This document shows positions 211-7,620 of a stretch of 7,620 nucleotides of DNA, one piece after another. Under the pieces are notes generated by a model. It made no database searches, was not told the origin of the DNA, and saw only the letters and a list, made by a program, of their open reading frames with translations. Location: the NCBI GenBank assembly GCA_030620005.1, contig JAUXAJ010000249.1:1-7620 (forward strand). The letters run 5' to 3'. Numbering within the stretch: the first letter of the stretch is position 1; every line of letters begins with the position of its first letter. The translations under genes were made by a program, and so were the position numbers. Origin of the DNA: Promethearchaeota archaeon. Its GTDB lineage: Archaea; Asgardarchaeota; Lokiarchaeia; Sigynarchaeales; SOKP01.

Positions 211-492
211 ATGAGTCTTAAATTAATTGAAAATAAAGAAAAGAAATATTCTTTATTTCTTAATAAGAATAGATGCGGTGGTTGCGAAATATGCGTGGTA
301 GTGTGCCCTACTGGGATACTAGAAATGGGCGACGAGTTAAACGTGAGAATTGCTTACATTCCTAGAGTAAAAGAAGGTAAAGAAAAATATTGTTCAGCGT
401 GCAGGAGATGCGAGTATAGTTGCCCTGATTGGGCTATTTACGTTTTAGATGAAGGAAAAAATAATCAAGCTACTGAAAAGGCTAAAGTTTAA
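211..492 (+). CDS. korD: KorD: 2x[4Fe-4S] ferredoxin subunit of 2-oxoacid:ferredoxin oxidoreductase
   Basis: A 93-residue dicluster ferredoxin, the delta subunit of the 2-oxoacid:ferredoxin oxidoreductase encoded by the next three genes. Two classical CxxCxxCxxxCP motifs are visible: C22/C25/C28/C32-P33 and C61/C64/C67/C71-P72, each giving one [4Fe-4S] cluster. Size and spacing fit the KorD/PorD family. In that family the subunit takes electrons from the KorB cluster and hands them to free ferredoxin. Here a further acceptor may be the fusion protein at the end of the operon. The ATG start follows a GTGA element with 6 nt spacing. The GTG at 201 is out of frame. It is first in the operon, 12 nt ahead of korA. 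No membrane segment or signal is visible, so it should be cytoplasmic. The family is clear; the exact substrate class of the complex is not settled by this subunit. Confidence 0.93.
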   Translation: MSLKLIENKEKKYSLFLNKNRCGGCEICVVVCPTGILEMGDELNVRIAYIPRVKEGKEKYCSACRRCEYSCPDWAIYVLDEGKNNQATEKAKV

Positions 493-504
493 CGAGGTGA
501 AAAT

Positions 505-1677
505 ATGAATAAAGCTGAAAAAAATAGGTTTTTACCCGAAGGAAAATATGTAATGATGGGAAATATTGCGATGAGCGAAGGTGCTATAGCTGCCGGCTTG
601 AAATTCTTTGGAGGTTATCCAATCACCCCCAGCACGGAAGTGATAGAACATCTTGCGAGAAGGCTCCCTGAAGTAGGGGGGTGTTGCATGCAGATGGAGG
701 ACGAGCTCGCGTCAATTAACTCGGTTATTGGAGCTTCAATAGCTGGAGCTAAGGCAATGACAGCAACTTCTGGACCTGGCCTTTCTTTAATGACTGAAAC
801 CATTTCAATGGCAGCCAATCTTGAAATACCCTTTGTCTTTTGTGATGTTCAGAGAAACGGTCCCGGAACTGGTTATGTAACTGAACCCCACCATAACGAT
901 TTAGGTTTAGTTAGGTTTGCTGGAAACGGTGAATTTCAAGTGATTGCGTTAGCTCCCATGAATTGTCAAGAATTATTTGACTTGACCATAACGGCGTTTA
1001 ATTTTGCTGAGATATACCGGTGTCCCGTATTTATATTATCGGATGCGTACTTAGGACATCTCCACGAAGCAATCTACATTCCACCTAAAGAAGAGATTTT
1101 ATCAAGAGTTGTATCGCGTAAACTTCCAGAAAAAGTAGGAGCAAAGATTTTTACTTACAAGGATCCGAGTACAGGCGCTCACATAATCCCTCCACAATCA
1201 ATGATGGGAACTGAATTTGGAGCGCCCCTTCTCATACACCTACCCCACGGGCCAGATGGCTTGCCAACGCCTAAACCAATGAATTTCATAGAAGCAATCA
1301 TGGATAAAGTAAACTCCAACAAAGACAAAATATGTTTAACCGATCAATATAAATTGACCGACGCTGAAATCGTGATAGTTGCTTACGGTTTACCCGTTCG
1401 CACGAGTTATCGGGCAGTTGATATAGCTCGAAAAGAAGGGATCAAGGTTGGTATTTTTAGATTAATTACTGTCTGGCCCTTTCCAGACGAGAAAGTGAAG
1501 GAAGCTGTAAAGGATGCAAAGGCAGTAATAGTGCCGGAGTTGAATTATACGGGCGTCATTGCTGAACAAGTTGAAAGGGTTACTAAACTTGAAACTCCAG
1601 TATTGAAAATTCCCAAGGTATGTGAATTTCATCACCCCGACGACATATTAGAAGTTATAAGGGAGGTGGCCAATTAA
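505..1677 (+). CDS. korA: 2-oxoacid:ferredoxin oxidoreductase, alpha subunit (KorA-like)
   Basis: The 390-residue alpha subunit, combining the pyrimidine-binding TPP half (domain I) and the transketolase C-terminal-like domain (domain II). The signature GYPITPST lies at 37-44, and QMEDELASI (63-71) and TATSGPGLSL (86-95) are also conserved family blocks. The C-terminal third (from about residue 285) has the VIVAYG...VGIFRLITVWPFP pattern of domain II. With KorB it oxidatively decarboxylates a 2-oxoacid to an acyl-CoA plus CO2. The substrate is probably 2-oxoglutarate or a branched-chain 2-oxoacid. The loop usually reading GPSTGLPT in KorA reads GPGTGYVTE (119-127), followed by HHNDL, which is intermediate between the KorA and VorA-type patterns I recall, so the kor name is provisional. 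GAGGTGA (494-500) supports the ATG. The stop overlaps the korB ATG by 1 nt, indicating translational coupling. Confidence 0.92.
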   Translation: MNKAEKNRFLPEGKYVMMGNIAMSEGAIAAGLKFFGGYPITPSTEVIEHLARRLPEVGGCCMQMEDELASINSVIGASIAGAKAMTATSGPGLSLMTETISMAANLEIPFVFCDVQRNGPGTGYVTEPHHNDLGLVRFAGNGEFQVIALAPMNCQELFDLTITAFNFAEIYRCPVFILSDAYLGHLHEAIYIPPKEEILSRVVSRKLPEKVGAKIFTYKDPSTGAHIIPPQSMMGTEFGAPLLIHLPHGPDGLPTPKPMNFIEAIMDKVNSNKDKICLTDQYKLTDAEIVIVAYGLPVRTSYRAVDIARKEGIKVGIFRLITVWPFPDEKVKEAVKDAKAVIVPELNYTGVIAEQVERVTKLETPVLKIPKVCEFHHPDDILEVIREVAN

Positions 1678-2597
1678 TGTCTGGAATAGGTCCAACATAT
1701 CCAAGCGAGAAGCCAGAGCATCCTTACTTGAAATATTCCTACGTGGGAGACCTGCTTGGAAATTATTCCTCGAGATTCTGCGCTGGATGTGGGTACGGAA
1801 TCATGGCTCATGTTTACACTCGATTATTTGAAGATTTAAAGCTAGATCCAAAATTGTACCCTTTAGTAGTTGGAATTGGATGTTACAGTCAAATAATGCT
1901 ATTAGTTCACGCAAAAGCTCAAAAAATTTTAACGCTACACGGTCGAGCTCCGGCAATTGCCACGGGTATTAAGATGGCAAATCCTAAGATGAAACCCATC
2001 ATCTTTTCTGGTGATGGAGATTGCTTGGGGATTGGTGGAAATCACTTCATTCATCTTTGTCGAAGAAATCTTGACTGCATTATATTCATTTTTAACAATA
2101 GCATATACGCTATGACTGGAGGGCAAGGTGCACCTACAACTTTATTCGGTGCAAAATCAACAACGACTCCTTATTCAATGTTTGAGAATAGAAGTGACGG
2201 AGTAAAATTAGCGCTAGCGGCAGGTGCCACCTACGTTGCGAGAACTTCCATTGCTCACCCACGGACCTTGATGAAATACTTCAAGAAAGCGCTCAATCAT
2301 AAAGGCACTTCCGTGATTGAAATTATTATTCAATGCGTGACTTATTTCGGTAGAAAGAATCTTGATAGCTTAGGTTCTGAGATTGATGGTGCTAAGGGTA
2401 TAAAAATGGATTCCGGAGGGAAAATGATTGATTGGATAAAAAAGAACACGGTTAGAAAAAATCAGGCCAAATTCATGAGCGAAGAAGAGTTATTTAACAA
2501 GTATGTTCTCGGAGAATTCAGATACGAGCCAAATAAACCAGAATATTCGGAAGAATACGAAAAAATAAAAAGAATTGCCCAAGGGGAGGGAAAGTAA
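1677..2597 (+). CDS. korB: 2-oxoacid:ferredoxin oxidoreductase, beta subunit (TPP and [4Fe-4S])
   Basis: The 306-residue catalytic beta subunit carrying the diphosphate-binding half of TPP and the internal [4Fe-4S] cluster. The cluster ligands expected for the family are visible: C35-x2-C38-G and C220 in the CVTYFGRKN block, with C69 (GIGCY) near the active site. The TPP/Mg motif GDGDCLGIGGNH is at 112-123, with RRN at 129-131 and NNSIYAMTGGQ at 140-150. LHGRAPAIATG (87-97) is also typical. Members with KorA form the decarboxylating core, and electrons from the hydroxyalkyl-TPP radical leave through this cluster to KorD. GGGAGGTGG (1661-1669) lies inside the end of korA, 7 nt before the ATG. 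The first 30 residues are variable. The C-terminal tail after about residue 270 is charged and carries no recognised motif. The family is secure; substrate specificity is inferred only. Confidence 0.94.
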   Translation: MSGIGPTYPSEKPEHPYLKYSYVGDLLGNYSSRFCAGCGYGIMAHVYTRLFEDLKLDPKLYPLVVGIGCYSQIMLLVHAKAQKILTLHGRAPAIATGIKMANPKMKPIIFSGDGDCLGIGGNHFIHLCRRNLDCIIFIFNNSIYAMTGGQGAPTTLFGAKSTTTPYSMFENRSDGVKLALAAGATYVARTSIAHPRTLMKYFKKALNHKGTSVIEIIIQCVTYFGRKNLDSLGSEIDGAKGIKMDSGGKMIDWIKKNTVRKNQAKFMSEEELFNKYVLGEFRYEPNKPEYSEEYEKIKRIAQGEGK

Positions 2598-2600
2598 CAA

Positions 2601-3197
2601 ATGAGTAGATATGAAATTCGTATAGCGGGATTTGGTGGACAGGGTGTAATCACGCTCAGTAAGATGATTGTCACAGCTACTTCTCTGTACGAAGGATTAG
2701 CTTCAACGCAAACAGAAGCTTATAGTGCTTCCGCGCGTGGCGGAAAATGTTGGGGAGAAATTGTTGTGGATTTAGATAAAGAGACGAAATTGATTGATTA
2801 TCCAAAAGCAATGATACCTTATGATTTTTTAATAGTTCTTTCTGAAGAATCTGCGAAGGATGTCAAGCGAAATCACCTGAAAAAGGGAGATAATACAGGA
2901 TTCTTGGTGTGGGATCCCTCAACGATAAAGAAATTTCCAACAGCGAAAAGAGTGAAATCGCTTTCGATACCCGTTCAGAAATTGGCGTTGGAAAGGTTTG
3001 GGAACATCGTGTATGGAAACACCATTCTCTTTGGCATCTTTACAACTCTTTCTGGCGTGATTTCTGAAGAATCCGCGATCGAGACGGTAAAAAAATTCGT
3101 CCCTAGCGTTACATTGGACAAGAACTTGGAAGCTTTTGAGTTAGGTAAGCAAGAAGCTTTAGAATACTTGAATAAGTTAAAGGAGGAGGAGAAATAA
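2601..3197 (+). CDS. korC: 2-oxoacid:ferredoxin oxidoreductase, gamma subunit (KorC-like)
   Basis: The 198-residue gamma subunit of the pyruvate/ketoisovalerate oxidoreductase catalytic-domain family, involved in CoA binding and stabilisation of the complex. The N-terminal glycine motif AGFGGQGV is at 9-16, and the family block TQTEAYSASARGGKCWGE is at 36-53. In KorC sequences I recall, the middle of this block reads SYGPEARGG, so SASARGG is a variant, although the RGG core is kept. The length is normal for a free-standing gamma subunit. It starts 3 nt after korB, and GGGGAGGG (2583-2590) inside the end of korB acts as the ribosome binding site with a 10-nt spacer. Its own last codons encode KEEEK through an AGGAGGAGGAG run, which doubles as the Shine-Dalgarno site of the next gene. 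It is probably cytoplasmic. It completes the D-A-B-C subunit set. Confidence 0.9.
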   Translation: MSRYEIRIAGFGGQGVITLSKMIVTATSLYEGLASTQTEAYSASARGGKCWGEIVVDLDKETKLIDYPKAMIPYDFLIVLSEESAKDVKRNHLKKGDNTGFLVWDPSTIKKFPTAKRVKSLSIPVQKLALERFGNIVYGNTILFGIFTTLSGVISEESAIETVKKFVPSVTLDKNLEAFELGKQEALEYLNKLKEEEK

Positions 3198-3198
3198 A

Positions 3199-5016
3199 AT
3201 GCACTTTGAAAAAATCAAGAAAGGATGGAGCGAATTAGAGGCAGAAGTGATTAGAACTGGCAAATGCACGTTTTGTGGTGCGTGTGGTGCATTTTGCATG
3301 AACATCACGTTTGACATGGAAAAGGAGGTACCAATCGAAGACGGTTCTTGCAAAGACGTGAACACTTGCCGCGACGGTTTTGGCCTTTGTTATAATTTGT
3401 GCCCACAAACAGGAAAAGATCAAATTTCGACATTCCTATTGGATAAGTGGGTTTTTGGTAAGGAACACGATAAAATCTTGGGTCATTACATCGATATTGT
3501 TTCCGTTAAGCTGTCAGATTCAGCAAGCAAAAAATTACCGATGGAAGCTGGACCTCTAACGGGGTTGTTATATTCTGCAATGGAAGAAGGATTAATTGAT
3601 TGTTCGATAATAACAGACAAGGACGAAAATTTTAGACCTTTTCCCATGCTTGCAAAAAATCCGCAGGAATTATTCCAGGGTGTTGGATATAAACCAAGTC
3701 AAAGTCCCACGCTATCTTTAGTTGGAGAAGCAATAAATAAGGAATTTGTTGATATCGCAGTTGTAGGAACTCCTTGCCAAATTCAGGCCCTTCGAAAGCT
3801 ACAAAACCATCCACACTTCGATTTTGAAGCGTACGACTTGGTTTCGCTTGCCGTGGGAACTTTTTGTTTAGGGACGTTCCACAATCAATTAATTGAACAA
3901 TGTTTTAAAGAACAGGATTTGAAACCTGGTGAAATCACCAAAATAGAAACCGACAAGAACGAGTTTAAAATGATCGTAACGACAAGTTCAGGCAAGAAAG
4001 AAATCCCCTTGAATTATATATACGATAAATCCGTTAGAAACGCCTGTTTCTCTTGTTCGGATTACACTGCTTCGTTTGCAGACGTGTCTGTTGGAAGCAT
4101 AGGAAGCGAAAACGGTTGGAAAACGATGATAATCAGAACAGAAAGAGGTAAAGAAGTGTTTGACGCGGCTGTTAGCAAGGGAATTCTTGAAGCAAAAACT
4201 CTGGAAAAAGATAAAGAAGAGATCGTCTTGGACATAACTAGAAATAAAACTGATATCGTAAAAATCGAATCAGTCGTGGAACATTCTCCTGAAATTAAAA
4301 GCATCATTATAAGGAACGAAAGAATTGCTAAAGCGTATCGACCCGGACAATTCATGATTTTATGGATTCACGACGTTGATTTTTTACCAATGTCAATTTC
4401 TAATATTGAAGGAAACCTAATTGAAATTACCGTTCAGAAAATTGGGGAAGGCACGGGTAAACTGTTTGAACTAAAAGAAGGCGATAGTATAGGAATAAGA
4501 GGTCCTTTTGGAAACTCGTGGAATTACGAGGACGCTTCCAATATTCTTATAGTTGGAGGGGGAATGGGTACTGCTGCTTTAACTTCACTGATTGAACCAT
4601 TAAAACAAAATAAGAAGAATATAACCGTGACTATTGGAGCAAAAGACGAGCCTTCCTTAATTTTTGCCGATAAGTTGATTGACCTGATTCCTAATACCAT
4701 GTGCAGTACTGACGATGGTTCGCGGGGAAAAAAATGCTTTGTAACTGATACAATTGAGGAAATTTTTAAGGGAAATACAATTGACCTCATAATGACATGT
4801 GGCCCTGAAGTAATGATGAAAAAAGTCCTTGAAATTGCTGAATCTAAAAACATTGAAGTTCAAGCTTCCCTCGAGAGAAAGATGAAATGTGGCGTTGGAT
4901 TATGTGGGTCATGCTGTATTGGAGAAAATAATGATACATGCGTTTGTAAGGATGGCCCCATTTTCAAGTCAGAGCAATTAAAAACATTTCCGCAGTTTGG
5001 AACTTACTCGAAATAA
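3199..5016 (+). CDS. FrhB-PyrK fusion: ferredoxin-like + F420-type flavoprotein + FAD/NAD/[2Fe-2S] reductase
   Basis: A 605-residue soluble redox protein with three modules. Residues 20-72 are ferredoxin-like: C23/C26/C29/C33 form one [4Fe-4S] motif, and C51/C57/C64/C68-P a second with irregular spacing. Residues 95-335 match the FrhB/FdhB family (F420-reducing hydrogenase beta subunit; FAD, F420 and [4Fe-4S]). Visible there are AGPLTGLLYSAMEEG (117-131), GTPCQIQALRKLQ (190-202), GTFC (220-223), CFSC (283-286) and ADVSVGSIGS (294-303). C193, C223, C283 and C286 are candidate cluster ligands. Residues 350-605 are a full archaeal PyrK-type domain: RPGQF (381-385), PMSIS (397-401) for FAD, GGGMGTAAL (453-461) and TCGPEVMM (533-540) for NAD(P), and C564-x4-C569-x2-C572-x10-C583 for [2Fe-2S]. 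It starts 1 nt after korC behind AGGAGGAGGAG. No pyrD is nearby. It probably links Kor-derived electrons to F420 and NAD(P); the direction of flow is inference. Confidence 0.92.
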   Translation: MHFEKIKKGWSELEAEVIRTGKCTFCGACGAFCMNITFDMEKEVPIEDGSCKDVNTCRDGFGLCYNLCPQTGKDQISTFLLDKWVFGKEHDKILGHYIDIVSVKLSDSASKKLPMEAGPLTGLLYSAMEEGLIDCSIITDKDENFRPFPMLAKNPQELFQGVGYKPSQSPTLSLVGEAINKEFVDIAVVGTPCQIQALRKLQNHPHFDFEAYDLVSLAVGTFCLGTFHNQLIEQCFKEQDLKPGEITKIETDKNEFKMIVTTSSGKKEIPLNYIYDKSVRNACFSCSDYTASFADVSVGSIGSENGWKTMIIRTERGKEVFDAAVSKGILEAKTLEKDKEEIVLDITRNKTDIVKIESVVEHSPEIKSIIIRNERIAKAYRPGQFMILWIHDVDFLPMSISNIEGNLIEITVQKIGEGTGKLFELKEGDSIGIRGPFGNSWNYEDASNILIVGGGMGTAALTSLIEPLKQNKKNITVTIGAKDEPSLIFADKLIDLIPNTMCSTDDGSRGKKCFVTDTIEEIFKGNTIDLIMTCGPEVMMKKVLEIAESKNIEVQASLERKMKCGVGLCGSCCIGENNDTCVCKDGPIFKSEQLKTFPQFGTYSK

Positions 5017-5145: not shown

Positions 5146-5829
5146 GTGTCTAGAGAATCCATGAAAAATCTACCCAAAAATTGTATTGCTGATGATAACT
5201 CTAATTGTGATGAATGCGAATTAAATGATCTTTTGCTTTGCAATTTTGAGAAAAAGTTTGCTAATGGATTCTTATTTGGTAATATCGCGTATAGAATTCT
5301 TGCAATTATCATATTATCATTAGTAGGGTTCTTAATGGGACAATGGTGGATGGTAATTACTTATTTATTTGTTGTCTTGTTAACCTTTGTTGTTATTGAG
5401 CCAAGATTGTTATGTAGTCATTGCCCTTTCTATGCCAAGGAAGGAAAATGCCTTAAATGTTGGGCACTAAGAGGCATGCCTAAGTTCTGGAGATATCGTC
5501 CAGAACCTATTAATAAAAAAGAGAAGAACGCAATGCTTGCCATCGGAGCCTTTATAGACTTATTTCCTTATGTAGGTTCTATTTTAGGAATTATTTGGTT
5601 TATTTTCAATCCAACAGACAATTATTTAATAGGAACATGGTTAATAATCGTCACGATCATTTTTACAGGTATAGTTATTTACTTTTCCTCAATACTACAA
5701 GGCAATGCTTGTAAAAAATGTCCCAATTTTTCTTGCGCAATGAACAAAGTTCATGATAATATTAAAGAAGCGTTCATGGAAAAAAACCCAATAATTAAAG
5801 AAGCTTGGAAAAATTCAGAAAAAATCTAA
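5146..5829 (+). CDS. Four-helix membrane protein with three cysteine clusters, unknown function
   Basis: A 227-residue integral membrane protein with four predicted helices at about 46-64, 67-84, 128-154 and 160-182, so both ends should face the same side. Cysteines sit only in the soluble parts. The N-terminus has C13, C21-x2-C24 and C32; the central loop after helix 2 has C90-x2-C93-P, C102-x2-C105; the C-terminal side after helix 4 has C189-x2-C192-P and C197. The loop continues with a GMPKFWRYRPEP block (110-121). This pattern recalls uncharacterised archaeal and bacterial membrane proteins I have seen only as hypothetical. Metal or Fe-S binding is plausible but unproven. The start is GTG at 5146, supported by GTGAT at 5136-5140 with a 5-nt spacer. 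The ATG at 5161 is an alternative. It lies 129 nt beyond the kor operon and its terminator, so it is probably a separate transcription unit. Confidence 0.82.
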   Translation: MSRESMKNLPKNCIADDNSNCDECELNDLLLCNFEKKFANGFLFGNIAYRILAIIILSLVGFLMGQWWMVITYLFVVLLTFVVIEPRLLCSHCPFYAKEGKCLKCWALRGMPKFWRYRPEPINKKEKNAMLAIGAFIDLFPYVGSILGIIWFIFNPTDNYLIGTWLIIVTIIFTGIVIYFSSILQGNACKKCPNFSCAMNKVHDNIKEAFMEKNPIIKEAWKNSEKI

Positions 5830-5844: not shown

Positions 5845-5943
5845 AATTTTCAAAATGGAATCTGCTTAAAAAAGGCTTTTCCTGAAGAATATTACCGAGG
5901 GTTCCCAGATTTTTACCCCGATGAATACAAGTGGTCATATTAA
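5845..5943 (+). pseudogene. Possible start-less gene tail (coding-like fragment)
   Basis: After the stop of the membrane protein there is an open + strand stretch with no plausible start. From 5872 it reads KAFPEEYYRGFPDF followed by YPDEYKWSY and a TAA at 5941-5943. The composition (Tyr/Phe/Pro/acidic, ending in an ordinary tail) looks more like protein than the surrounding AT-rich spacer. It may be the 3' remnant of a lost gene. It is only about 24 credible codons and I recognise no family, so chance is a real alternative. Confidence 0.25.
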
Positions 5944-6212
5944 GTCTTATAACAATACTTTAAATTTAGATCCAACTTTTTCTTTTATTTTAGAACGATA
6001 GCATTTAAGGAGATATCAATTCCATGTATAATGAGATTATCCAATTTCGATGTTAAAAACGCAATAACGCTTCCATCGCTCCAACCAATATCAAAAAATG
6101 AGTATTTGTCAGATTTATTTAAAAAATGGCTAAGACAATTTAAGGTTACACTCGCAGTTTTACTAACCTTATCATCGCCACTATAAATCCTAGGTATCTC
6201 TCTCTCTCACAT
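5940..6212 (-). pseudogene. Degraded SAM-dependent class I methyltransferase (N-terminal remnant)
   Basis: Read on the - strand, the frame from 6206 down to 5988 gives 73 codons with the start of a class I methyltransferase. SAM motif I appears as FDIGWSDGS (residues 38-46 counted from 6206), and the end of strand 2 with its acidic residue as HGIDIS (61-66). The first codons read EREIPRIYSGDDK. Several lesions are visible. An in-frame ATG at 6212-6210 is followed directly by TGA. A TAA at 5987-5985 interrupts the chain just after ISLNAIVLK, yet coding-like KKKLDLNLKYCYKT continues to a second TAA at 5942-5940. The family GxGxG core is spoiled, since DIGCGDGS would be usual and here W and S replace C and G. 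The remaining two thirds of a normal 200-300 residue enzyme is absent. No Shine-Dalgarno site precedes it. The substrate cannot be told. Confidence 0.62.
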
Positions 6213-6264
6213 TGGTTTTTTACAAAAATTTTTTGATAATGTCGAATTTAACTGTTTGTTAGAT

Positions 6265-6846
6265 ATGAATGAATTTACTATTAACGAATTTTTAAAATTA
6301 CATTTGGAAAATGGTAAGACTATCATTTATGTTGATGATAAGAAGGTAATTCAGTGTAAATACTTATTATTAAACCCTTCCTCTGAAAAAAAGGATAAAC
6401 TAGACGCAAATAATCAGAATAATACTGTTGATGACCAGCTTGAAAATCTAGATCGTTCTCTAGAACTTAATGAAGATAATTGCATTGAAATCCCCCCAGA
6501 AGCAGAATTCTGGGCCCATTCATCTAACTTACAAGCATGGTATGAAAATGATTATGACACTCATGTGCTCCACACTAATTTAGCTTTCCCTCTCTTGAGA
6601 GAATTGACTGAGGCAGGGGATAAACTCGCCAAAAAAGTTTTCAAGGAGGAAATAAAAAAACGATTCCGTTCTGGTAATTTAAATGTTAAAGTTTTTTTAA
6701 TTAAGGAAGGATTTCTTGATAGGGACATCATGGATATTGATGAATATGAAGAGCTCCACGAGGTATTAGATTTTGAAACTCAGAAGATGCTTCAGAAGCG
6801 CCTTAGAGAAGAATCTAATACAATTCGCGATGGTTTTTTAATATAA
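6265..6846 (+). CDS. Hypothetical protein resembling a Lokiarchaea-expanded family
   Basis: A 193-residue soluble, charged protein with no signal peptide, membrane helix or catalytic motif I can name. The N-terminal 36 residues form a small beta-rich unit (NEFLKLHLENGKTIIYV, then QCKYLLLN). Residues 38-74 are polar, Asn/Asp/Glu-rich linker. Residues 76-135 are the conserved-looking core: IPPEAEFWAHSSNLQAWYEN (76-95), then YDTHVLHTNLAFPLL and a helix ending KKVFKEEIKKRF. From memory, very similar cores occur repeatedly in Lokiarchaeal proteins, often beside leucine-rich repeats. No such repeats follow here. I chose ATG 6265 because the recalled family starts with M-(D/N)-x-NEF. An upstream in-frame TTG at 6256 would add three residues. 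No clear Shine-Dalgarno site is present, so translation may be leaderless. Function is unknown; protein interaction or regulation is a guess. Confidence 0.8.
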   Translation: MNEFTINEFLKLHLENGKTIIYVDDKKVIQCKYLLLNPSSEKKDKLDANNQNNTVDDQLENLDRSLELNEDNCIEIPPEAEFWAHSSNLQAWYENDYDTHVLHTNLAFPLLRELTEAGDKLAKKVFKEEIKKRFRSGNLNVKVFLIKEGFLDRDIMDIDEYEELHEVLDFETQKMLQKRLREESNTIRDGFLI

Positions 6847-6857
6847 ATGATAAATGG

Positions 6858-6869
6858 ATTGTTAACAAT
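6858..6869. repeat. 12-bp perfect palindrome
   Basis: ATTGTTAACAAT is a perfect 12-bp inverted repeat, 12 nt after the stop of the preceding gene and about 40 nt upstream of the TATA-like element. It could be a dimeric regulator site, but in such AT-rich DNA chance is possible. Confidence 0.3.
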
Positions 6870-6889
6870 TCAATGAAATAATACACAAA

Positions 6890-6903
6890 TTTATTATTTT
6901 TTG
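6890..6903 (+). terminator. Possible T-rich terminator
   Basis: T-rich run TTTATTATTTTTT with T6 at 6897-6902, about 45 nt after the stop of the gene ending at 6846. It is consistent with archaeal oligo-T termination but weak in this AT-rich spacer. Confidence 0.3.
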
Positions 6904-6910
6904 TTGCATA

Positions 6911-6922
6911 ACATATATATTA
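6911..6922 (+). promoter_or_regulatory. TATA-like element for the 3' membrane-protein gene
   Basis: ACATATATATTA is the best TATA-box match between the two genes. If used, transcription would begin near 6940-6950, giving a leader of roughly 50 nt before the ATG at 6996. It lies just after the T-rich run, as expected of a gene boundary. No clear BRE can be distinguished. Confidence 0.35.
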
Positions 6923-6923
6923 T

Positions 6924-6959
6924 CTTGTTTTTACTTAGAAAATATTAAAAAAAAACAAG
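6924..6959 (+). repeat. 9-bp inverted repeat in the spacer before 6996
   Basis: CTTGTTTTT (6924-6932) and AAAAACAAG (6951-6959) are perfect complements separated by 18 nt, so a weak stem-loop or a protein-binding site is possible. The A/T-rich arms make chance occurrence plausible. TTGCATAA also occurs twice as a direct repeat, at 6904-6911 and 6966-6973. Confidence 0.3.
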
Positions 6960-6995
6960 CATTGATTGCATAAGGATATAAGGGGTTTTATTTAC

Positions 6996-7620
6996 ATGGA
7001 TATTGAAATAATTTATTATACTTTTTTATCTTTCTTCTTTGTATTTATAGGAACCATATTAATTGTAGGCATTTTTTTATTATATCGAGCGAAGAAAACA
7101 AGGTTAAATAATCTTTTTTTTATCGGGATGGCATTTATATTAATTTCAATAGGGTTAATAGGTAATTTAACCTTAAATTTAGGAGATATTTTTCAACAGA
7201 GCTTCATTTTTTTTAGTTATATATTAGTAATACTTTTTACTAATTTTACGTTTCATCAAAACCGAAATACTCCTGCTAAACAAATTCTTATTATAGTAAT
7301 ATTACTGGGCATTGTTGTGTTGTTAGTTCAAGTATGGTTCACGTTTCAACTTAACCCTATAACATATTATTTAAAACTACTTTTTGATATCGCATTTAAC
7401 ATGCTAACCTTTAATTGGATGGCATGGTCGTCATTTTCTGCGTATAAACAATTAAAAAATCAAGATATACAGCCATGGATAAAAATGAGATATAAAATGA
7501 TTTCCCTATTTTCATTTCTTTTAAGTTTAAACGTTATCCCTCAATTATTTCAACCATGGAATGTTAAGTGGGGAGATCCTAACAATGCTCAGGCTTTAAT
7601 TGTTTTTGGTATCATGGCTA
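6996..7620 (+). CDS. Multi-pass membrane protein, partial (runs off the window end)
   Basis: An open frame of 208 codons from ATG 6996 with no stop before the window ends, so the C-terminus is missing. It is strongly hydrophobic with about six or seven helices visible: roughly 5-29, 39-60, 66-86, 95-117, 124-147, 166-185 and a last beginning near 198. The first helix begins almost at the N-terminus and needs no cleavable signal. RAKKTR (31-36) after helix 1 suggests by the positive-inside rule that this loop is cytoplasmic. The sixth helix is preceded by QPWIKMRYKM (159-168). The layout resembles small 7-TM-like hypothetical proteins and sensor N-termini I recall from Lokiarchaea. No enzymatic motif or sensor output domain is visible. 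AGGGG at 6981-6985 lies 10 nt before the ATG and supports this start. Confidence 0.75.
   Translation, partial: MDIEIIYYTFLSFFFVFIGTILIVGIFLLYRAKKTRLNNLFFIGMAFILISIGLIGNLTLNLGDIFQQSFIFFSYILVILFTNFTFHQNRNTPAKQILIIVILLGIVVLLVQVWFTFQLNPITYYLKLLFDIAFNMLTFNWMAWSSFSAYKQLKNQDIQPWIKMRYKMISLFSFLLSLNVIPQLFQPWNVKWGDPNNAQALIVFGIMA

What the first reader, a model, noticed from the sequence alone, without database searches (positions are those of the whole stretch)
3199..5016. FrhB-PyrK fusion welded to a complete KorDABC operon: possible ferredoxin/F420/NAD electron hub
Seen: one 605-residue protein carries ferredoxin-like cysteines (23-68), an FrhB-type domain (95-335) and a full archaeal PyrK-type domain with FAD, NAD and [2Fe-2S] motifs (350-605), 1 nt downstream of korC. 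Known: FrhB uses FAD to exchange electrons with F420, PyrK uses FAD and a [2Fe-2S] cluster to exchange electrons with NAD, and Kor makes low-potential ferredoxin-level electrons. Inference: the operon makes one complex in which 2-oxoacid oxidation (or reductive carboxylation) is coupled to both F420 and NAD(P). Two flavins with different two-electron acceptors is an architecture compatible with flavin-based bifurcation or confurcation. I do not recall a characterised protein with this domain combination.
Basis: partly seen in the sequence, partly recalled or inferred. Interest (0 to 1): 0.8.

Follow-up and report, generated by a model that had tools for sequence, protein, structure and literature searches.

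The report
Kor-linked FrhB-PyrK electron-output fusion
Some Asgard archaea carry a fused iron-sulfur flavoprotein as the fifth gene of a 2-oxoacid oxidoreductase operon, which probably lets that enzyme hand its electrons directly to NAD(P) instead of to free ferredoxin; whether it also uses coenzyme F420 is doubtful.

Summary
Window 3199-5016 encodes a 605-aa ferredoxin(2x[4Fe-4S])-FrhB-PyrK fusion, 1 nt after korC in a korDABC operon, of Asgard (probably Lokiarchaeia) origin. It is a discrete family: 167 fused proteins, this one included, were aligned, one on a 3.7-Mb contig. Each domain forms one clade in its own tree. Of 227 Asgard genomes, 48 have the fusion, whole or in part, and 48 the matching korB; 45 have both, and 4 of the 6 mismatches end at contig or scaffold breaks. 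The window model is confident (pLDDT 91.8, pTM 0.91); its N-half matches the F420-reductase subunit of CO dehydrogenase (8RIU), its C-half NfnA and PyrK. The F420 half of the claim is weak: cluster cysteines and the NAD motif are invariant, but several FrhB residues near FAD/F420 are mostly replaced. Best reading: a dedicated output subunit making this Kor an NAD(P)-linked 2-oxoacid dehydrogenase, FrhB being mainly an Fe-S (perhaps flavin) bridge. A dual F420/NAD hub is possible; bifurcation has no positive support. I found no description in the papers searched. New variant of a known kind.

The parts
211..492 (+). korD: 2x[4Fe-4S] ferredoxin-like delta subunit
   Evidence: 93 aa, Fer4 families, OorD-like NF007205 E 5e-18, 65 bits, below cut-off 93
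505..1677 (+). korA: 2-oxoacid oxidoreductase alpha (POR_N + PFOR_II)
   Evidence: NF006412 404.7 bits, just under its cut-off 411
1677..2597 (+). korB: TPP-binding beta subunit
   Evidence: TPP_enzyme_C E 3e-31; TIGR02177 195.9 bits, below cut-off 261.9
2601..3197 (+). korC: gamma subunit (POR domain)
   Evidence: PF01558 E 4e-24
3181..3191 (+). purine-rich ribosome-binding-like stretch inside the korC 3' end, upstream of the fusion start
   Evidence: read from sequence
3199..5016 (+). Fd-FrhB-PyrK fusion, 605 aa
3199..3468 (+). fusion aa 1-90: ferredoxin-like domain, 8 invariant Cys (23,26,29,33,51,57,64,68), presumably two [4Fe-4S]
   Evidence: aligned to the 8RIU zeta N-terminal domain
3469..4233 (+). 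fusion aa 91-345: FrhB-fold domain, [4Fe-4S] ligands C193, C223, C283, C286; several FAD/F420-lining residues altered
4246..5013 (+). fusion aa 350-605: PyrK-type FAD/NAD(P) domain with [2Fe-2S] ligands C564, C569, C572, C583

Best explanation
The fusion is a dedicated electron-output subunit of this Kor complex. Its N-terminal ferredoxin domain probably docks on Kor where free ferredoxin would, as the homologous zeta subunit docks on CO dehydrogenase, and takes electrons released by 2-oxoacid + CoA oxidation. They pass through two [4Fe-4S] clusters and the [4Fe-4S] of the FrhB-fold domain (with or without its flavin) to the [2Fe-2S], FAD and NAD(P) site of the PyrK domain. Net: 2-oxoacid + CoA + NAD(P)+ to acyl-CoA + CO2 + NAD(P)H, downhill without bifurcation. 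The FrhB domain serves mainly as a bridge; its F420 site has been remodelled and may no longer use F420. Shown here: predicted fold, conserved ligands, operon link, co-occurrence, common origin, pocket change. Inferred: complex formation, electron path, direction, acceptor.
Against: No experiment shows binding to Kor or NAD(P) reduction. The window's own pocket keeps some F420-type letters (S300, K165, K253). In a mostly Lokiarchaeia set of 132 the new pocket consensus is itself conserved (A117 120, P119 120, P166 125 of 132), which suggests a working flavin or ligand site rather than a plain wire. The genomes can make F420 (CofD over cut-off in 44/48, CofH in 34/48). A second model, of the Sigynarchaeia fusion (32-sequence alignment), was weak: pLDDT 75.3, pTM 0.71, with most of the ferredoxin part under 50 and only the PyrK part near 90, so a fixed arrangement is supported only for the window protein. 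In G116 korB lies apart from korC-fusion. NAD against NADP was not resolved. No coordinates were available, so distances are untested.
Confidence: 0.5

Rival explanations
1. One reading: Kor electrons go both to F420 (at the FrhB flavin) and to NAD(P) (at the PyrK flavin), and the protein also equilibrates F420H2 with NAD(P)H.
For: FrhB fold and all four cluster ligands kept; K165-type Lys/Arg 135/166 and the G211/S212 loop 147/167 and 161/167 kept; F420 biosynthesis genes in most host genomes; FrhB paralogues with PFOR in ANME-1 were proposed to reduce F420 (PMC9012536, passages); zeta-CODH does so in vitro (PMC11493965).
Against: Q24, D25, G26, Y76 and S209 equivalents mostly replaced, most in Sigynarchaeia; K167-type kept in 30/167 against 23/36 elsewhere; 4 of 48 fusion genomes (G005, G006, G115, G151) gave no CofH match at all, though these genomes may be incomplete.
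Confidence: 0.25
2. Nfn-like confurcation: low-potential Kor electrons and NADH meet at the FrhB-domain flavin to make two F420H2 (or another two-electron product), or the reverse drives reductive carboxylation.
Against: Cys at the [2Fe-2S] place where the solved NfnA proteins have Asp (that the Asp is a ligand is recalled); no FrhB flavin is known to me to bifurcate (recalled); oxidation of 2-oxoacids by NAD is already downhill, and no high-potential acceptor was found among the ORFs tested.
Confidence: 0.07
3. The fusion is a free ferredoxin:NAD(P) (or F420) oxidoreductase that only shares an operon with Kor.
For: It carries its own Fd-like and NAD modules; in G116 (L004) korC-fusion lies apart from korB, which is on another contig.
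Against: Near-perfect co-occurrence and synteny; the homologous Fd domain in 8RIU is a docking domain (PMC11493965).
Confidence: 0.13
4. It is the pyrimidine-pathway PyrK with an added FrhB domain, as its database name says.
For: Named dihydroorotate dehydrogenase electron transfer subunit in public records; NF000796 above cut-off.
Against: PyrD has its own adjacent PyrK in G001, which also scores above cut-off (one fusion genome checked), and the tree separates that group from the fusions.
Confidence: 0.03

Closest known systems
Zeta subunit of F420-reducing CO dehydrogenase, Ca. Ethanoperedens (8RIU; PMC11493965), and FwdI of F420-reducing Fwd (8RJA)
   Different: No PyrK domain; partner is CODH or Fwd, not Kor; canonical Q-D/N-G-G and Tyr-76 kept there
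FrhB6 with pyruvate:ferredoxin oxidoreductase in ANME-1 (PMC9012536, passages)
   Same: An FrhB paralogue encoded with a 2-oxoacid oxidoreductase, proposed to take its electrons
   Different: PFOR rather than Kor; no PyrK fusion described in the passages read
PyrK of class 1B dihydroorotate dehydrogenase
   Different: Partner is not PyrD; fused to Fd-FrhB
NfnAB (NfnSL) bifurcating transhydrogenase
   Different: No NfnB; Cys for Asp at the [2Fe-2S]
NADP-linked 2-oxoglutarate oxidoreductase of Azoarcus and NADH-dependent phenylglyoxylate dehydrogenase (recalled; seen only as a title in a reference list, and as NCBIfam names; papers not read)
   Same: 2-oxoacid oxidoreductases that use NAD(P) through an extra flavin-bearing subunit (recalled)
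   Different: That subunit is of another family (recalled)

Membership tests
2-oxoacid:acceptor oxidoreductase KorDABC | alpha (POR_N), beta (TPP), gamma (POR) and delta (2x[4Fe-4S]) subunits | tested here: met
   Pfam; the best NCBIfam scores of all four subunits are under the curated cut-offs, so the substrate is not settled
F420-reactive FrhB family | FrhB fold | tested here: met
F420-reactive FrhB family | four Cys ligands of the [4Fe-4S] (C104, C134, C192, C195 of FrhB) | tested here: met
   167/167 each
F420-reactive FrhB family | FAD/F420-lining residues (QDGG helix start, Tyr76, Ser209; places from PMC3591093) | tested here: not met
   changed in most fusions; in the window Q24, D25, G26 and Y76 are changed, S209 kept
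F420-reactive FrhB family | F420 reduction | not testable with these tools
   needs enzyme assay
PyrK (DHODB electron transfer subunit) | curated archaeal PyrK model above cut-off; [2Fe-2S] Cys and NAD motif | tested here: met
PyrK (DHODB electron transfer subunit) | encoded with PyrD as its partner | tested here: not met
   after korC in 35 of 35 loci; a separate PyrK stands beside PyrD in G001
NfnAB electron bifurcase | NfnB subunit in the operon | tested here: not met
   no GltD/NfnB-like match among the 7 window ORFs tested
NfnAB electron bifurcase | Asp in place of the first [2Fe-2S] Cys | tested here: not met
   Cys564 aligned to Asp in 4YLF and 5JCA
Zeta-type F420 output subunit of CODH | Fd + FrhB domains encoded with a CO2-forming oxidoreductase | tested here: met
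Zeta-type F420 output subunit of CODH | physical complex with F420 reduction | not testable with these tools
   needs purification

The most novel reading that the evidence does not exclude
The remodelled FrhB flavin is a new type of bifurcating/confurcating site: electrons from 2-oxoacid oxidation by Kor and from NADH meet there, through the [4Fe-4S] chain and the PyrK [2Fe-2S], to drive a two-electron carrier (F420 or another), or in reverse to drive reductive carboxylation, an Nfn-like machine built from FrhB and PyrK instead of NfnB and NfnA.
Probability: 0.07. Interest if true: 0.9.

Novelty: new variant of a known kind. Interest (0 to 1): 0.55.

Why it matters
[quoted passage not shown] If in these lineages Kor delivers electrons to NAD(P) (or F420), the redox budget of 2-oxoacid breakdown and of any syntrophic hydrogen or formate exchange changes. 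The family also shows how one docking module (Fd-FrhB) can be given a second, NAD-type head while its own acceptor site changes. Public records call it a dihydroorotate dehydrogenase subunit, which is misleading.

Tried and rejected
Rejected: assembly artefact or frameshift join (160 of 167 aligned fusions carry both ends with all 16 cysteines, the other 7 lack one end; one lies on a 3.7-Mb contig); pyrimidine PyrK; F420 genes as proof of F420 use (CofE is above cut-off in 200 of 227 Asgard genomes, so it does not discriminate). Tried without result: Rfam on the window (0 matches); a whole genome for the window (none held); measuring cluster distances (no coordinates are handed out). Literature: the Azoarcus Kor paper is not held. 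NAD against NADP: the P. furiosus SHI gamma alignment was fetched but not used for a conclusion. Substrate of Kor: neighbours (LutAB-like, nitrilase, RidA in L001) are suggestive only and not conserved in all loci.

Counting notes: the comparison set of 41 rows held one fusion fragment (L174) and duplicate rows; it was reduced to 40 and to 36 distinct. Apart from the PDB chains these other FrhBs are not shown to use F420. One search tallied several positions that were off by one; one search has the right ones. The 132 rows include partial rows L139 and L140, and rows taken from loci that may repeat listed proteins. The PyrK tree used 82 of 113 domain matches (duplicates and most further fusion rows dropped; no L139 or L140). 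The FrhB tree used 68 distinct rows, 32 of them fusions. The close-korB set was taken by me from the top matches listed at 58% identity or more, including partial ones (G115, G128, G145, G148, G159). The fusion set of 48 includes partial matches (G094, G103, G104, G108, G115, G146, G153, G157, G162). In one search the ORF picker lost korB and korC of L029, which one search shows. Listing limits: searches list 120 of 334 and 120 of 296 hits; one search kept the best 80 of 214.

Full report
What is there. The window encodes korD (211-492), korA (505-1677), korB (1677-2597), korC (2601-3197) and a 605-aa protein (3199-5016) on one strand with gaps of 12, -1, 3 and 1 nt. Pfam and NCBIfam identify Kor subunits and, in the fifth protein, FrhB N and C families, an NAD-binding domain and the DHODB [2Fe-2S] domain. 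The archaeal PyrK model NF000796 scores 266 bits against a cut-off of 224, while the FrhB models score well but below their cut-offs. Relatives place the window in Asgard archaea: the best matches with named genomes are Lokiarchaeota/Lokiarchaeia MAGs at 77% and below, and the 119 other proteins listed are 70-78% identical; their records, where named, carry mostly Promethearchaeota or Lokiarchaeota labels, a few Hermod-, Thor- or Hodarchaeota.

A real and discrete family. Searches with the window protein and with a Sigynarchaeia protein together listed 167 fused proteins, the window's own included. In the second search (120 of 296 hits listed) the scores fall abruptly from E 1e-116 (fusions) to E 5e-42 (other PyrK-containing architectures). 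One member lies on a contig of 3,705,313 bases (P0135), so the fusion is not an assembly product. In the genome collection, the 32 fused matches listed all carry Asgard names; the other 46 loci match the PyrK part, some reaching into the end of the FrhB part (best 80 of 214 kept). A scan of 227 Asgard genomes found the fusion, whole or in part, in 48. A tree of the FrhB part puts 32 fusion rows in one clade (100/99); a tree of the PyrK part puts 14 fusion rows in one clade (99/88), away from the group that holds the PyrK standing beside PyrD in G001. One origin by fusion is the simplest reading; long branches (G162) make inner placing unsure.

Tie to kor. korC is upstream on the same strand in 35 of 35 loci with a fusion (32, L139, L140 and the window); korB is present upstream in 33 of 34 where sequence allows. 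The exception is L004, a locus of G116, where 1.3 kb before korC holds no korB and the genome's close korB lies on another contig. In L025 an insert of about 1.4 kb separates korB and korC. Among 227 genomes a close korB (58% or more) occurs in 48 and the fusion in 48, both in 45 (Fisher p 3e-40; within a 70-genome block of handles around Lokiarchaeia 44 both, 3, 3, 20 neither, p 2e-11; related genomes are not independent, so p is only a guide). The three korB-only genomes break inside korB (two contig ends, one run of 100 N); of the three fusion-only genomes one is cut by a contig end and two hold only C-terminal fragments. More distant korABC loci in G092 and G093 (KorB 47-52%) have no fusion after korC, so the fusion is an addition to this Kor, not a general part of such operons.

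The F420 question. Mills et al. (PMC3591093, passages read) place the FAD pyrophosphate at the N-terminal end of FrhB helix 26-64, the flavin near Lys75-Tyr76, and F420 near Ser209-Val210 and the 163-IGKGK turn. Mapping by the alignment, the fusions keep Gln24 in 5/167, Asp/Asn25 in 35/167, Gly26 in 26/167, an aromatic residue at 76 in 7/166 and a small residue at 209 in 13/167, against 26/35, 34/35, 35/35, 34/36 and 33/36 in 36 distinct other FrhB domains (33 Asgard, 3 PDB). With one fusion per 75%-identity cluster (45) the figures are 1, 12, 16, 5 and 3 of 45, while two glycines of the PyrK GGGxG motif are 45/45. Other pocket letters are kept: Gly27 159/167, Gly211 147/167, Ser212-type 161/167, Lys165-type 135/166; Lys167-type only 30/167 against 23/36. 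In a mostly Lokiarchaeia set the new pocket is itself conserved; in Sigynarchaeia it differs again (GGGAEAGLL, ANAP, GVVDALPGW in several); the G094-like branch is nearest to the classical pattern. I read this as a flavin/F420 pocket that has been re-specified more than once while the Fe-S path was held fixed. That makes F420 reduction uncertain, not excluded; the window itself has Ser at 209.

Mechanism. From these facts the likeliest working is a dedicated output subunit: Kor to Fd domain to FrhB cluster to [2Fe-2S] to FAD to NAD(P). With NAD at -320 mV, F420 at -360 mV and ferredoxin near -420 mV (PMC5861303, passages read) and 2-oxoacid couples near -500 mV (recalled), oxidation is downhill and needs no bifurcation. 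NfnAB has a similar order of parts (PMC5861303), which keeps a confurcating reading open, but the fusion has Cys where the solved NfnA proteins have Asp and no high-potential acceptor was found among the window ORFs tested. All steps after gene order and predicted fold are inferred. The second, weak model came in after the odds were set; it bears on the arrangement in Sigynarchaeia, not on the acceptor, and I left the odds as they were.

What is known. F420 output modules on CODH and Fwd are known (PMC11493965); FrhB genes beside PFOR and CODH were noted in ANME-1 and proposed as dedicated F420 reduction (PMC9012536, passages read). An archaeal fusion survey lists korA-korC and korB-korC fusions; the passages found by my terms in PMC11237513 do not mention this one, and PyrK does not occur in that main text. 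A search for FrhB with PyrK in one paper found none; searches with Asgard/Lokiarchaeota/Lokiarchaeia terms gave listings in which I saw no description, and passages of PMC8163825, PMC11291895 and PMC8498797 gave none. Most subscription papers are not in that library, and supplements could not be read. PMC8498797 (passages) states that several Asgard groups encode F420 synthesis. The record name 'dihydroorotate dehydrogenase electron transfer subunit' reflects only the C-terminal domain.

Verdict. The NAD side and the Kor link are well supported by sequence; the F420 side is doubtful; bifurcation is a possibility without positive support. New variant of a known kind; interest 0.55.

Noticed in passing
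L160:1623-6415 (G120), L161:3789-8319 (G125): Two Asgard genomes without the fusion carry more distant korA and korB followed directly by a 787-aa HdrA2-like protein (NF040770 1061 and 1055 bits, just under cut-off 1100); in L160 a korD-like hit and a korC-like gene (986-1555) precede them: a possible bifurcating Kor.
   Followed up: partly
L150:4192-7825 (G110); L095:3-2268 and L188 (G003): A 915-aa FrhB + GltA/NfnB-like fusion beside a SudB/NfnA-like gene in L150, and an FrhB gene beside a SudB/NfnA-like gene in L095 (same gene 917 aa long in L188): a possible F420-linked Nfn or glutamate-synthase-like system in Asgard archaea.
   Followed up: partly
L103:318-3097 (G008), L104 (G002): An FrhB gene beside sulfhydrogenase gamma-like and beta-like genes (for L103; FrhB- and PyrK-like matches side by side in L104).
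   Followed up: no
L001, L008, L014, L015, L016, L017, L018, L019, L020, L024, L028, L032: upstream of korD: In 12 of 35 loci (several others have too little flank) a LutA/LldE-like and a LutB-like gene lie near the operon, in 6 with a D-galactarate/altronate dehydratase C-terminal-family gene further out, hinting at 2-hydroxyacid to 2-oxoacid supply.
   Followed up: partly
L004 / G116: korC and the fusion stand without korB just upstream; the genome's close korB lies on another contig; rearrangement or assembly error.
   Followed up: partly
L195 (G153) 6724-7284; L196 (G157) 5917-6243: Orphan C-terminal fragments of the fusion; decay or misassembly.
   Followed up: partly
window 5146-5829 and 6256-6846: Two ORFs of 227 and 196 aa after the fusion without any family above its cut-off; the second has a partial relative in L004.
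   Followed up: no
G003: Twelve FrhB_FdhB_C matches, the fusion among them, in one 4.3-Mb genome: a large set of paralogues.
   Followed up: no
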